Below are positions 2,234 through 53,287 of a DNA stretch of 64,000 nucleotides, in pieces; the first letter of the stretch is position 1, and the number at the start of each line of letters is the position of its first letter. The DNA lies in the NCBI RefSeq assembly GCF_030369615.1, contig NZ_CP128494.1, positions 2,065,501-2,129,500 of the forward strand. The letters run 5' to 3'. The translations under genes and the position numbers were made by a program. The notes beneath the pieces were generated by a model, which was not told where the DNA came from, did not search any database, and saw only the letters and a program-made list of their open reading frames with translations. The stretch is from Geobacillus stearothermophilus ATCC 12980. GTDB taxonomy: Bacteria > Bacillota > Bacilli > Bacillales > Anoxybacillaceae.

Positions 2234-2596
2234 GCAAAAAAGCCCCTTTCATCCGAAAAGGACGAAAGGAGCTGCTTTCGCGGTACCACCTTTTTTCTTA
2301 AGCCTAGAAGGCTGGTGATGAAGAGAACCGCAACACGGCCAACCCACCGGTGAAACATCGGCTGGCGAGCCCACAATCAGTTTAGTTGACCGGCCTTCTA
2401 GAAGCTTAAGCGCTTCATTGGCATAACGGCATGATGCCGGCTTCCTCTACTCGGCAGCAGCGCCTTTCAAAGAAGCAGCTCAAGGGCGACCTTCCAGCAG
2501 CCGTCATCCTAGGAAATCTCGCAGCTTCTGATTTCCCTCTCTGCAGGCGCGGACCGCTGTACTCCTCCCCGTCTTCGCTTTTGTCGTCATGATTCG
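2234..2596 (-). promoter_or_regulatory. T-box leader of valS (tRNA-Val sensing)
   Basis: Untranslated leader of about 360 nt that controls valS by sensing uncharged tRNA-Val. The conserved T-box (GGTGGTACCGCG in the minus strand) is at 2278-2291. It is followed by a GC-rich terminator hairpin and T-run at about 2238-2273, the standard antiterminator/terminator arrangement. The Stem I region contains the AGAGAGGGAAAT and AGAAGCTGCGA motifs typical of T-boxes. The most likely specifier codon is GTC (Val), read from the minus strand at 2488-2490. It is followed by G rather than the common A, so the exact codon is less certain than the element. Confidence 0.93.
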
Positions 2597-29365: not shown

Positions 29366-29680
29366 ATATAAAAAACCTTTTCACCCACCATGACTGGCAT
29401 TTCCAGCCAAAGGGGCGAAAAGGTTTCCTTTCCGCGGTACCACCCTTCTTCACGGCCATGACGGCCGCCTCAGGAGCAGCCAGCCGAAACCGGCTGCTCG
29501 TTTTTTGTAACGGGTGAAGCGCACATCCCCACCCGTCCGGCCCTACTGGCGAATCTGCGTTCAAGCCGGCGCTCGGAGGTGAGTTCATCAAGCGGCAACA
29601 TCACCGGTTCGCAGCTCCCCCGGCTCTCTGTGGATGTTGGCCCCGCTGACTACTTATCCTCGTCAACGCTTTCTCGCTAT
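29366..29680 (-). promoter_or_regulatory. Leucine T-box leader of ilvBNC-leuABCD
   Basis: The T-box GGGTGGTACCGCGGAAAG (minus strand) lies at about 29431-29448. A terminator hairpin follows at about 29371-29427, with arms AAACCTTTTC/GAAAAGGTTT and a T run. Upstream, Stem I includes ACAGAGAG and the sequence GATGAACTCACC, where CTC (29581-29583) followed by A is the likely Leu specifier, as in B. subtilis ilvB. No convincing promoter is visible between ilvE and the leader, so transcription may come through ilvE. Confidence 0.92.
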
Positions 29681-32911: not shown

Positions 32912-32952
32912 CCAAAAAACAAAGAGGCGGAGCACGCTTCCACCTCTTTGTT
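32912..32952 (-). terminator. Terminator of gerM (beyond the inserted element)
   Basis: Hairpin AACAAAGAGG/CCTCTTTGTT (32918-32952) followed by six T residues in the minus strand. It lies about 250 nt past the gerM stop, because a non-coding mobile element separates gene and terminator. Confidence 0.85.
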
Positions 32953-32984
32953 ATACCATAACAGCCTATTCGTTTCCAGCTTGG

Positions 32985-33205
32985 GTGAACACCCCACCAC
33001 TTACGCTTCGCTTAGAGGCGGGGGCTTCAAGCGACTTGTGCGTGTTCGCCGAACGGTAAGCCACACACAAGAACCCTTTACACTTTCCTTCGTTCCGAAG
33101 GGGTCCGTTCTAACCTTATTTTATCCTATTCGTTGGCTAACGCCAACCGACATTCATCTCCCACTTTCACTTTGCTTAGAAGCGGGAGACTTCTTTCGGA
33201 AAGAT
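32985..33205 (-). mobile_element. Non-coding IS200/IS605-type element (PATE-like), copy 1
   Basis: Protein-less element of about 221 bp with ends of the IS200/IS605/TnpB kind. Read in the minus strand it begins after TTTAAC and has a left-end hairpin (TCTCCCGCTT/AAGTGGGAGA). It continues through the GTTGGC/GCCAAC hairpin and the CTTGTGTGTG/CACGCACAAG stem, and ends with a CCCC/GGGG hairpin and GTTCAC. A second copy at 35851-36088 shares nearly the whole sequence. It lies immediately after the gerM stop and before the gerM terminator, so it should be transcribed as 3' UTR. No reading frame in it looks like a protein. The family name is from memory of palindrome-associated elements in Geobacillus. 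Confidence 0.8.
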
Positions 33206-33206
33206 G

Positions 33207-34283
33207 TTAAAACGACCCGGTATTGACGTTTTGTGGGCGGGCGACCGGTTTTGTGAGCGGTTTGCCGTCTTCCGTAACAAGATCGGCTTTGCCGTTCACC
33301 GTAATCGTGACGCTCTCAACGCCGCTTTGCTCGGTGAGCGACAACACAAGCGAGTTCAAGACGACGTCAGAAATCACATTTTTCTTGTTGCTGCCAAAAA
33401 TGCCTTCGTTAAAATTGAGCGTGACTTGGCCATCTTCGTATTTTGGCTTGTCAAGCAGCTTGGCGTCCGGCTGGAAGACGCCGACAAGCACACTGCCATG
33501 TTCCGGCCCTTGAATAAGTTCATGGACCGCCGCCGCGATATCATCTTTTTCTTGGTTGGAAACACGTCTTGTCACAGGGACATAATACGTCGTTTCTCCC
33601 TGTTGGGCAACAAAATACACGGTGACGGGATGCGTATTCGTAATGTCCGGCACACCGCCCGCCTCCATGTTGATGCCGTCGGCGCGGCTCACCCCGTCTT
33701 GAATCGGCGTTTTATTGACCGGCATCACCTCTTGGTCATAACCGTTAATGCGGATTTTGACGCGCTTAATGTTGTCAAACTGCGTCAACGTCCACGCAAT
33801 GGCTTGCAAAATCCGCTTTTCGTCTTCCGGTTTGTATTGCTTGAATTCCGGTGAAAAATCGGCGATCAACGTCCCGTCTTTTTCAAGTTTGGTGCCAAGC
33901 ACGGTTGTCCCTGCCGGAATGACGGCGCGGAAACCGTTCGGCAACATATTCGACACCGGTCCGTCTTCAACCAAATACTCAAGCACTTGTTTCGCAACAG
34001 CCTGCGTTTTTGGCAACTCAACCGTTTGCGGCACGACATATCCGTTTTTGTCAATCAGGTAAAGCTCTCGCTTGACCGTCTCGGTCGCCTTCTCTTCCTC
34101 TTTGGCCCCCTCTTTCCCTTTCGTTGCCTCCTCGAGCGCCTGGCCGTCTTTTACATAGCTCGTGTTTTGCGGCGGATCAATTTCCTTCACTGCTTCATCT
34201 TGGCCAAACAAGCCGCAGCCGCCGAGCAGCAAAAGCGAAGCGAGCACCGGCGCCGTCCATCTATGAACCGTCCGTTTGCCCAT
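33207..34283 (-). CDS. gerM: Germination/sporulation lipoprotein GerM
   Basis: Secreted lipoprotein (358 residues) needed for normal sporulation and germination in B. subtilis; it has been linked to the SpoIIIAH-SpoIIQ channel. The lipobox LLLLGGC (residues about 17-23) follows a basic N-terminus. Two GerM domains follow (about residues 65-205 and 210-345), each with the IADFS/VTLNF-type core. The stop TAA forms part of the TTTTAAC used as insertion site by the mobile element downstream, so the coding sequence is intact. RBS GGAGGG precedes the ATG. Confidence 0.94.
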   Translation of the reverse strand: MGKRTVHRWTAPVLASLLLLGGCGLFGQDEAVKEIDPPQNTSYVKDGQALEEATKGKEGAKEEEKATETVKRELYLIDKNGYVVPQTVELPKTQAVAKQVLEYLVEDGPVSNMLPNGFRAVIPAGTTVLGTKLEKDGTLIADFSPEFKQYKPEDEKRILQAIAWTLTQFDNIKRVKIRINGYDQEVMPVNKTPIQDGVSRADGINMEAGGVPDITNTHPVTVYFVAQQGETTYYVPVTRRVSNQEKDDIAAAVHELIQGPEHGSVLVGVFQPDAKLLDKPKYEDGQVTLNFNEGIFGSNKKNVISDVVLNSLVLSLTEQSGVESVTITVNGKADLVTEDGKPLTKPVARPQNVNTGSF

Positions 34284-35850: not shown

Positions 35851-36088
35851 GTGAACTACCCACCACCTACGCTTCGCTTAGAGGTGGGGGCTTCAAGCGA
35901 CTTGTGTGTGTTCGCTGAACGGTAAGCCACACACAAGAACCCTTTACGCTTCCCTTCGTTCCGAAGGTGTCCGTTCTAGCCATATTCTATCATATTCGTT
36001 GGCTAACGCCAACCGAAATTCATCTCCCACTTTCACTGGTGCTGGCGCACCTTCACGTTTAGAAGTAGGAGACTTCTTTCGGAGGGAA
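35851..36088 (-). mobile_element. Non-coding IS200/IS605-type element (PATE-like), copy 2
   Basis: About 238 bp, colinear with copy 1 (32985-33205). Same minus-strand order: TTTAAC target, left-end hairpin, GTTGGC/GCCAAC hairpin, a fully paired CTTGTGTGTG/CACACACAAG stem, right-end hairpin CCACCT/AGGTGG and terminal GTTCAC. It differs from copy 1 by scattered substitutions and an extra small hairpin (GGTGC/GCACC) of about 17 nt inside the left-end loop. Inserted directly after the gerE stop codon (the TAA is part of TTTAAC) and before the probable gerE terminator. No protein is encoded. Confidence 0.8.
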
Positions 36089-36089
36089 G

Positions 36090-36314
36090 TTAAAGTTTCA
36101 GTTCGCCCATTCGAAGCAATTCAATCACAGCTTGCGAGCGCCCCTTGACCCCAAGCTTTTGCATCGCATTCGAAATATGGTTGCGAACGGTTTTTTCACT
36201 GATGAACAGTTCTTTGGCGATTTCCTTCGTCGTCTTATCTTGCACGAGCAATTCGAAGACTTCTTTTTCTCTTTTTGTCAAAAGCGGCTTCGATTGAAAC
36301 GATTGATCCCTCAA
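36090..36314 (-). CDS. gerE: Spore-gene transcription factor GerE
   Basis: LuxR/FixJ-type helix-turn-helix protein of 74 residues that tunes late sigma-K-dependent coat genes. The sequence LLTKREKEVFELLVQDKTT through AKELFISEKTVRNHISNAMQ is the HTH and is nearly identical to B. subtilis GerE; the length is also identical. Start is a TTG at 36314 with AGGAGGG upstream. A sigma-K-type promoter lies about 60 bp upstream. The coding region is intact despite the mobile element at its stop codon. Confidence 0.97.
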   Translation of the reverse strand: MRDQSFQSKPLLTKREKEVFELLVQDKTTKEIAKELFISEKTVRNHISNAMQKLGVKGRSQAVIELLRMGELKL

Positions 36315-52406: not shown

Positions 52407-52522
52407 TCTATAACTGATTATATTGTAATACACAAAAAAGAGACAATTTTAGGCTATACCTAACCGAAATTCATCTCCCACTTTCACTTCGTTTAGAAGT
52501 GGGAGACTTCTTTCGGAAAGAT
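52407..52522 (-). mobile_element. Left-end relic of an IS200/IS605-type element
   Basis: About 70 bp (52459-52528 with target) are nearly identical to the left ends of the two non-coding elements elsewhere in the window. They contain the target TTTAAC, the hairpin TCTCCCACTT/AAGTGGGAGA and the GAATTTCGGTT continuation. After this the sequence diverges from those copies and contains a TTGTCT-N18-TATAAT promoter, perhaps that of a lost transposase gene. The right end and any tnpA/tnpB are absent. It sits at the 3' end of fadB and abuts the truncated etfB. Confidence 0.75.
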
Positions 52523-53287
52523 GTTAAAGACGGGCGGCTGTTTTTCCAAAAACGCCTGCACGCCTTCTTTTGCATCCTCGGATCCAAACACGCGGCCAAA
52601 CCATTCCGCTTCCTCGCGCACGGCCTCAACGAACGTTTTTTCCTTGGCGGCGTTAAGCAACTCAATAACCGCCCGAACGGAAAGCGGACTTTTGGCGGCA
52701 ATCTTTTTCGCCAACGCTTTGGCTTCATCAAGAAGCCGCTCTTCCGGCACCGCCTTGTTGGCAAGCCCCCATTCAACCGCTTCGAGTCCGGTGATCGGCT
52801 CGCTCGTCCACATCATTTCCGGCGCTTTGCCAAAGCCGACGTAGCGCACAAGCCGATGCGTTCCAGCAAATCCAGGGATGAGGCCAAGCTGCAGCTCCGG
52901 AAGGCTGAGTTTGGCGTTTTCCGCCACCACACGAATGTGGCAGCTCATAGCCAGCTCCAACCCACCGCCTAATGCAGCGCCGTGAATCGCCGCAATGACT
53001 GGTTTGGAAAAGCGTTCGATCCGCTCCATCACGAGTTGGCCGTTGCGCGACAAGCCGGATGCCTCCTCGACGGAAGCGATGGACGTGAATTCTTTAATAT
53101 CGGCGCCGGCTGAGAAAAACCGCCCCTCGCCATGAAGCAACACGACGCGCACGTCCGGGTCGGTCTCAAGCTCGTCCAACAAGTTTGAAAGCTCTTTCAA
53201 AACAGTGGATACAAGAGCGTTCGCCGGCGACCGCGAAAACGTCACGACGGCGACGAACTCCTCTTTCGCTACGCGAAAAAAATTCAT
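52493..53287 (-). CDS. fadB: Enoyl-CoA hydratase/isomerase family protein, 3' end altered by IS
   Basis: Crotonase-fold enzyme (264 residues) hydrating 2-enoyl-CoA in beta-oxidation. Oxyanion-hole segments FSAGADIKEF and GAALGGGLELAMSCHIR and the catalytic glutamate in LPELQLGLIPG are intact. The last ten codons (NIFPKEVSHF) come from the IS200/IS605 left end inserted at GTCTTTAAC; native coding stops at about PPVF. The catalytic core is complete, so it may still be active, but its partners LcfA and EtfBA are broken. Next gene upstream is fadR (25 nt). Confidence 0.88.
   Translation of the reverse strand: MNFFRVAKEEFVAVVTFSRSPANALVSTVLKELSNLLDELETDPDVRVVLLHGEGRFFSAGADIKEFTSIASVEEASGLSRNGQLVMERIERFSKPVIAAIHGAALGGGLELAMSCHIRVVAENAKLSLPELQLGLIPGFAGTHRLVRYVGFGKAPEMMWTSEPITGLEAVEWGLANKAVPEERLLDEAKALAKKIAAKSPLSVRAVIELLNAAKEKTFVEAVREEAEWFGRVFGSEDAKEGVQAFLEKQPPVFNIFPKEVSHF

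What the first reader, a model, noticed from the sequence alone, without database searches (positions are those of the whole stretch)
32985..33205. Protein-less IS605/TnpB-type element placed in the gerM 3' UTR
Seen: a ~221-bp structured element starts exactly at TTTAAC, whose TAA is the gerM stop codon, and the gerM terminator lies beyond it at 32912-32952. The gene is therefore unharmed and the element must be copied into gerM mRNA. Known: IS200/IS605 elements insert 3' of a short TTTAA-like motif, which TnpB recognises as TAM, and the omega-RNA scaffold comes from the right end with the guide taken from flanking DNA. Inference: gerM transcripts carry an omega-RNA-like 3' part ending in GTTCAC, followed by a natural guide (CCAAGCTGGAAACG...). 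Such a sporulation-coupled guide RNA could serve a TnpB encoded elsewhere.
Basis: partly seen in the sequence, partly recalled or inferred. Interest (0 to 1): 0.8.

Follow-up and report, generated by a model that had tools for sequence, protein, structure and literature searches.

The report
Protein-less transposon carrying guide-like RNA
A small gene-free piece of jumping DNA sits exactly at the end of a spore gene in a heat-loving Geobacillus-type bacterium; besides the ends a transposase needs, it carries a conserved folded RNA with what looks like its own promoter, laid out like the guide RNAs of TnpB DNA-cutting enzymes, but no enzyme with a matching RNA was found in this genome.

Summary
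A 222-bp element (window 32985-33206, minus strand) starts right after TTTTAA, whose TAA is the gerM stop codon, and ends in GTTCAC before the gerM terminator. It is one of about 20 related copies in the genome. Ten of 14 genus genomes have gerM without it; there is no target duplication. It is a protein-less IS200/IS605 derivative (PATE): G004 and G011 carry tnpA+tnpB elements with a near-identical left end and right-end hairpin.

The striking part is a 130-nt RNA body behind a promoter-like sequence. Its pseudoknotted fold is supported by compensatory changes (60 copies: 88% of cells pair, against 38-45% in slid controls). It matches models in 23 of 41 family genomes, has no Rfam match, and its layout parallels right-end regions of some tnpB elements. 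I read it as an orphan omega-RNA-like scaffold with flanking DNA as guide.

Not supported: coupling to sporulation, or a working partner here. Copies lie beside other genes too, no Y1 TnpA was found in the genome, none of its tnpB elements shows this scaffold, and none of 158 fetched bodies (101 with at least 1 kb upstream) follows a tnpB. PATEs are known; the widespread orphan scaffold is the unusual part.

The parts
33207..34283 (-). gerM coding sequence; its stop codon TAA (33209-33207) is the end of the insertion target TTTTAA
   Evidence: Pfam PF10646 Germane 5.1e-45
33207..33211 (-). TTTAA target / TAM-like motif directly 5' of the element
   Evidence: TTTAA precedes 18 of 19 own copies with an intact left end, of 21 examined; TTTTAA kept in 8 of 10 unoccupied gerM sites
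32985..33206 (-). the element (PATE), 222 bp, C ... GTTCAC
33156..33190 (-). left-end imperfect palindrome (GTCTCCCGC...GTGGGAGAT)
   Evidence: near-identical left end (94% over 63 nt) in tnpA+tnpB elements L098/L099
33118..33146 (-). promoter-like TTGGCG-17-TAAAAT in front of the RNA body
   Evidence: 1 found, shuffles mean 0.2; best site in this same register in 24 of 59 distinct upstream stretches
32985..33114 (-). conserved RNA body (scaffold), 130 nt
   Evidence: models R1/R2; covariation
33105..33110 (-). pseudoknot strand GAACGG (partner 33056-33051 CCGTTC)
   Evidence: 92.8% of cells paired, 3 of 6 pairs with a double change
33087..33101 (-). hairpin H1 CCTTCGGAACGAAGG
   Evidence: 90.9% paired, 4 of 6 pairs with a double change
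33081..33085 (-). 5' strand of closing stem H0 (AAGTG here, AAGCG usually); partner CGCTT 33033-33029
   Evidence: 86.8% paired, 4 of 5 pairs with a double change, two sequences each, by eye the two Priestia copies
33035..33071 (-). hairpin H2, its loop holding the pseudoknot partner
   Evidence: 89.4% paired, 9 of 10 pairs with a double change
32992..33025 (-). right-end hairpin H3 (GCCCCCGCC...GGTGGGG)
   Evidence: weaker support, 70.6-84.4% paired; near-identical hairpin at the right end of tnpB elements L098, L099, L221, L224
32985..32990 (-). right-end motif GTTCAC, 3' end of scaffold
32965..32984 (-). flank-derived guide-equivalent CCAAGCTGGAAACGAATAGG
   Evidence: only its own site in this genome at <=3 mismatches
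32914..32949 (-). terminator-like hairpin and U tract after gerM and the element
   Evidence: not listed by the scan; similar hairpin visible by eye in the sequences
35851..36089 (-). second copy, 239 bp, starting exactly after the gerE stop codon (CTT TAA)
   Evidence: Pfam GerE 7.5e-24 for 36090-36314
52462..52528 (-). left-end remnant of the same group after TTTAA

Best explanation
A palindrome-associated, protein-less IS200/IS605 derivative (PATE) that was moved in trans by a Y1 transposase and landed 3' of the TTTTAA at the gerM stop codon. Between the ends needed for transposition it keeps a promoter-like sequence and a 130-nt pseudoknotted RNA that ends at the right boundary. The RNA is most likely an omega-RNA (reRNA)-type scaffold: transcription runs through GTTCAC into the flank, the first 16-20 flanking nucleotides become the guide, and a compatible TnpB would cut the excision scar (TTTTAA + flank) so that repair restores the element. 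Shown: ends, target, copy number, unoccupied sites, RNA conservation and covariation, promoter-like sequence. Inferred: transcription, the TnpB partner, cleavage. In this genome no Y1 transposase and no tnpB with this scaffold were found, so this copy is probably immobile and perhaps idle; the gerM reading frame is intact.
For: Multi-copy; TTTAA before 18 of 19 own copies with an intact left end. Unoccupied sites without duplication. tnpA+tnpB elements with a near-identical left end and right-end hairpin in G004 and G011 (L098, L099). RNA body under structural selection: 60 sequences, 33 pairs, 88.1% of cells paired (slid 37.6-44.9%), 73 double-change cells (slid 22-42, shuffles mean 31.6, 0 of 500), 23 of 33 pairs with a double change (slid 11-21, shuffles 14.9, 0 of 500); similar with 50 sequences. 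Found in 23 of 41 family genomes, 7 of 9 genera. Layout hairpin - closing stem around an inner hairpin - GAAG - terminal hairpin - TTCAC parallels the region downstream of tnpB in L221, less completely in L098 and L053. In 15 of 28 tnpB loci the R2 model's best hit lies just downstream of tnpB, 13.0-28.3 bits, mainly through H3. PATEs that keep the L098-type scaffold also exist (L101, L105, L106, L108).
Against: No tnpB was found with this scaffold: none of 158 bodies in fetched loci (101 with at least 1 kb upstream held, some places counted more than once) has a same-strand tnpB ending within 400 nt upstream, by tblastn with 8 TnpB queries. The 420-aa tnpB occurs in 7 of 14 genus genomes and does not track the RNA: G004 has 11 RNA matches and none of it. 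The promoter register is kept in 24 of 59 upstream stretches only. The minimum-energy fold of the gerM copy lacks the closing stem, and that of tnpB element L224 lacks it too. Some copies are 5' leaders, in Priestia without recognisable IS605 ends. The structure was drawn by eye on these sequences and revised once (the GGG/CCC stem gave way to H0 after the Priestia copies were seen); two of five measures did not exceed shuffles.
Confidence: 0.62

Rival explanations
1. The body is a real structured RNA carried by the PATE but not a TnpB guide: for instance an RNA that controls a transposase or a host gene in cis, picked up as cargo.
For: In five genomes of three genera the body lies in one shared place directly before a start codon, with a TATAAT in front (L174, L186, L188, L190, L192); the gene of L174 is a LytTR regulator, the others inferred from the shared flank. 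In Priestia taiwanensis two copies precede an ArsC-family (Spx-like) gene and a POR-family gene without IS605 ends recognisable by eye. No tnpB neighbour in any fetched locus.
Against: In most copies the RNA ends exactly at the IS605 right end, and its layout parallels tnpB-linked regions. PATEs with other bodies but similar ends exist (L152, L153), which fits either reading.
Confidence: 0.25
2. One reading: gerM transcripts in sporulation deliver this guide to a TnpB encoded in the same genome.
For: Sense orientation after gerM and before the terminator-like hairpin; 11 tnpB frames of 234 codons or more in the genome.
Against: Own promoter-like sequence; 21 model matches in the genome, at varied genes; no tnpB with this scaffold; TTTAT, not TTTAA, before the 420-aa type.
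Confidence: 0.06
3. A dead MITE-like repeat with no RNA role; the body looks conserved only because copies spread recently.
For: No Y1 transposase found in this genome; 2 of 21 longest own copies lack an intact left end and shorter fragments exist. Structures counted on 40 close copies alone exceeded shuffles clearly in one measure only.
Against: Compensatory changes across genera, including in the pseudoknot, are not expected of neutral copies; the body is kept where the left end is lost.
Confidence: 0.07

Closest known systems
PATEs (palindrome-associated transposable elements) of IS605 type, Haloquadratum and Halanaerobium
   Same: protein-less, IS605-like near-terminal palindromes, no target duplication (PMC3119063, passages); often mobile by a trans-acting transposase, and the Halanaerobium PATE-like sequence keeps the last 58 nt of tnpB and a whole 160-nt right end (PMC7290912, passages), so it too may keep a guide-RNA region
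   Different: here the retained part is conserved with compensatory changes over genera behind a promoter-like sequence, and no parent tnpB with that scaffold was found
TnpB reRNA / omega RNA of ISDra2
   Same: about 150 nt from the right end plus about 16 nt of flank; proposed to cut the donor joint next to the TAM (PMC8612924, passages)
   Different: that RNA overlaps the 3' end of tnpB in cis; here there is no tnpB
Sulfolobus SisTnpB (IS605-type)
   Same: TTTAA TAM and UUCAC scaffold end (PMC11043419, passages)
   Different: archaeal, tnpB present; scaffold not compared here
Geobacillus stearothermophilus ISGst elements and their PATEs (Meers et al. 2023, recalled only; paper not held)
   Same: as I recall, TnpA/TnpB IS605 elements and protein-less PATEs in this genus, with TnpB promoting retention
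   Different: I could not check whether this RNA body was described there

Membership tests
IS200/IS605-type PATE | no protein, near-terminal palindromes | tested here: met
   222 bp, no tnpA or tnpB match there
IS200/IS605-type PATE | inserts 3' of a short fixed motif without target duplication | tested here: met
   TTTAA before 18 of 19 own copies; gerM unoccupied in 10 of 14 genomes, no duplication
IS200/IS605-type PATE | ends shared with an autonomous tnpA element | tested here: met
   near-identical left end and right-end hairpin in L098/L099, which end TATGTCAC, not GTTCAC; GTTCAC-ended elements with tnpB-like frames in L221, L224, L227, L236, L240 (frames judged by eye, tnpA not checked there)
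IS200/IS605-type PATE | transposase available in trans | tested here: not met
   0 Y1_Tnp matches in the own genome; 11 of 14 genus genomes have one
TnpB omega RNA / reRNA | structured scaffold ending at the right boundary, flank as guide | tested here: met
   (structure and position only)
TnpB omega RNA / reRNA | scaffold linked to a tnpB gene | tested here: not met
   0 of 158 bodies, 101 of them with at least 1 kb upstream
TnpB omega RNA / reRNA | match to a described reRNA/omega RNA family | tested here: not met
   no Rfam family at gathering score; 3 weak matches far below cut-off; none at relatives
TnpB omega RNA / reRNA | RNA is made, bound by TnpB, directs cleavage | not testable with these tools
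   needs RNA sequencing and biochemistry

The most novel reading that the evidence does not exclude
An orphan guide-RNA transposon: a protein-less IS605 element whose cargo is a self-promoted omega-RNA-type gene that outlived its own TnpB, spreads through Geobacillus-related bacteria and their phages by borrowed transposases, serves TnpBs in trans, and has been taken over several times as a 5' leader of host genes (LytTR, Spx-like and POR-family genes).
Probability: 0.25. Interest if true: 0.78.

Novelty: new variant of a known kind. Interest (0 to 1): 0.52.

Why it matters
If the RNA is a guide, guide production and nuclease have come apart: one TnpB could police many protein-less copies, each reporting its own insertion site. 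That would make retention and gene-drive ideas about TnpB testable with about 20 natural guides in one genome. The TTTAA target also suggests how such elements settle harmlessly: its TAA can be a stop codon, as in 7 of 19 own copies with an intact left end. The leader-like copies offer a test of whether guide scaffolds become host regulators.

Tried and rejected
Rfam: gathering scan of the window gave only two T-boxes; the E-value scan of the site gave 3 weak matches far below cut-off; relatives gave none; loci of PATEs with other bodies gave rRNA, T-box, CRISPR-repeat and one partial SAM match, none of them at the PATEs.

Structure: the RNAalifold consensus of 40 close copies was poor, 15 pairs. 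Hand-drawn structures on them exceeded shuffles clearly only in double-change cells (7 of 500 and 0 of 500). With 51 copies and another closing stem, pairs with a double change (307 of 500) and pair types (353 of 500) did not exceed shuffles. With H0 and the Priestia copies all five measures did.

The 420-aa TnpB (L053 type) as partner: R2 scores 12 bits at its right end, E 0.2 in 82 kb, and its distribution does not follow the RNA. Left open, not claimed.

Stop-codon preference: the background (12 sites outside genes) includes the two window elements themselves and its n of 18 was a miscount (19), so the P value printed there is not used.

Order-level hits (20 of 299 genomes) are not all this RNA: of 19 loci outside the family read (L221, L224, L227, L231, L232, L236, L240) follow an open tnpB-like frame, L233 a shorter one and L222 a fragment; these match mainly by the terminal hairpin. 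L220, L229 and L238 look like the body itself, L230 doubtfully. Plasmids: 3 records with short partial matches.

Literature: searches (listings; one search found none) brought up PATE papers; in none of the listings or passages seen did I find this RNA. Term look-ups in PMC11870625 and PMC10969869 gave nothing on PATEs. The library lacks most subscription journals, so this is no proof of absence.

Full report
What is there. The window lies in a 2.86-Mb genome of two contigs. On the minus strand gerM ends TTT TAA and a 222-bp element follows at once, 33206-32985, ending GTTCAC; a terminator-like hairpin lies beyond it. DNA search of the own genome gives 31 matches, itself included; 21 match the RNA model R1 at E <= 1e-5. 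Of the 21 best-scoring copies (L001-L021), 19 have an intact left end by my pattern, 18 of them after TTTAA; L018 follows GTTAA. All 14 genus genomes hold DNA matches, some of them the left end only.

Unoccupied sites. Of 14 gerM loci, 4 carry an element (G000, G011, G007, G012) and 10 do not; 8 of the 10 read TTTTAA, 2 read TTTTAG. The copies of G000 and G011 are 99.1% identical. The gerM copy of G007 is 95.5% identical to three other copies of its own genome (identical to one another), 89.8% to a fourth, and 92.3% to that of G000, so it is best read as a separate insertion into the same site; for G012 (81.9% to G000, 83.4% to one other G012 copy) the data do not decide, and gene conversion is not excluded.

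Transposase and tnpB. The own genome has no Y1_Tnp match; 11 of 14 genus genomes do. It has 14 PF07282 matches, 11 of them in open frames of 234 to 420 codons. None of their right ends shows this RNA; the best model scores there are 14.0 and 12.0 bits, E 0.057 and 0.2. In G004 and G011 tnpA+tnpB elements have a near-identical left end and terminal right-end hairpin but another inner scaffold (L098, L099). GTTCAC-ended elements with tnpB-like frames and the same hairpin occur in other families of the order.

The RNA. The right 130 nt are better kept than the left part. I counted a structure of four stems (the terminal one in parts) and a pseudoknot, 33 pairs, on sequences chosen from the fetched copies by eye and by a similarity cut. 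With 50 sequences 89.4% of 1606 cells pair (slid 35.4-44.4%), 64 cells have changes on both sides (slid 18-28; shuffles 24.9, 0 of 500) and 19 of 33 pairs have such a change (slid 11-17; shuffles 12.0, 1 of 500). With 10 rows put back that I had left out (L126, L130, L135, L136, L137, L139, L175, L176, L177, L230) 88.1% of 1888 cells pair (slid 37.6-44.9%), 73 double-change cells (slid 22-42; shuffles 31.6, 0 of 500), 23 of 33 pairs (slid 11-21; shuffles 14.9, 0 of 500). Near-duplicates and some strongly deleted copies stayed out. The structure was drawn by eye on these sequences and revised once, which favours the percentage paired. Examples: pseudoknot G-C to A-U in 12 and 7 sequences, H2 G-C to A-U in 13. 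A promoter-like TTGGCG-17-TAAAAT precedes the body; the best site has this register in 24 of 59 distinct upstream stretches.

Why omega-RNA-like. Folded alone, the right end of tnpB element L221 shows hairpin, closing stem with an inner hairpin, AAG, terminal hairpin and TTCAC; L098 and L053 show the closing stem, inner and terminal hairpins with a different first part; L224 lacks the closing stem in its minimum-energy fold. The body of this element has the same order by covariation, although its own minimum-energy fold does not show the closing stem and the pseudoknot cannot be predicted by that program. The R2 model, built without tnpB elements, has its best hit just downstream of tnpB in 15 of 28 tnpB loci, mainly through the terminal hairpin, which is shared anyway; 13 loci do not show this. 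PATEs that keep the scaffold of L098 show that such deletion products occur here (L101, L105, L106, L108). By analogy this body would come from a TnpB lineage not seen in the genomes searched. That step is inference: none of 158 fetched bodies, 101 with 1 kb upstream, has tnpB beside it.

Where it does not fit. In five genomes of three genera the body sits in one shared place directly before a start codon, a LytTR gene in L174 (L174, L186, L188, L190, L192), and in Priestia taiwanensis before an ArsC-family and a POR-family gene. Six genomes of the genus share another insertion with the same flanks (L138, L140-L144). These could be exapted guides or could mean that the RNA never was a guide.

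Sporulation. Of 19 own copies with an intact left end, 7 follow a TTTAA that is the stop codon of an open frame of 81-453 codons, gerM and gerE among them. A target that contains TAA makes such landings harmless and puts the element in the 3' UTR in sense. I see no need for a sporulation role; no enrichment was shown. The guide of the gerM copy matches only its own flank in the genome at up to 3 mismatches.

Phages. Four viral contigs carry the element with its ends (L245-L248, three after TTTAA, one after TTTAT), which suggests a route of spread.

Known context. PATEs: PMC3119063, PMC7290912 (passages). reRNA and donor joint: PMC8612924 (passages). TTTAA/UUCAC: PMC11043419 (passages). TnpB processing its own mRNA: PMC10278001 (start of abstract and passages). 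Work on G. stearothermophilus ISGst elements and PATEs is recalled only. Confidence and interest were not changed by the recount.

Noticed in passing
window 35851-36089: Second copy of the element starts exactly after the gerE stop codon, also in sense orientation.
   Followed up: yes
window 52462-52528: Left-end remnant of the same IS605 group after TTTAA; the rest of the element is missing.
   Followed up: partly
L174, L186, L188, L190, L192: Body as a 5' leader directly before a start codon (a LytTR regulator gene in L174) in five genomes of three genera, with TATAAT in front.
   Followed up: partly
L241, L244 (Priestia taiwanensis): Body before an ArsC-family (Spx-like) and a POR-family gene, without IS605 ends recognisable by eye.
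   Followed up: partly
L152, L153, L113: PATEs with a similar left end and promoter region but a third, longer body (about 250 nt); no Rfam match reported there.
   Followed up: partly
L101, L105, L106, L108: PATEs that keep the scaffold of the L098-type tnpB element.
   Followed up: partly
L138, L140-L144: Insertion of the element with the same flanks in six genomes of the genus.
   Followed up: partly
G006: 25 matches to the 420-aa TnpB, yet no Y1 transposase was found in that genome.
   Followed up: no
window 2255-2584 and 29408-29675, minus strand: Two T-box leaders (Rfam RF00230).
   Followed up: no
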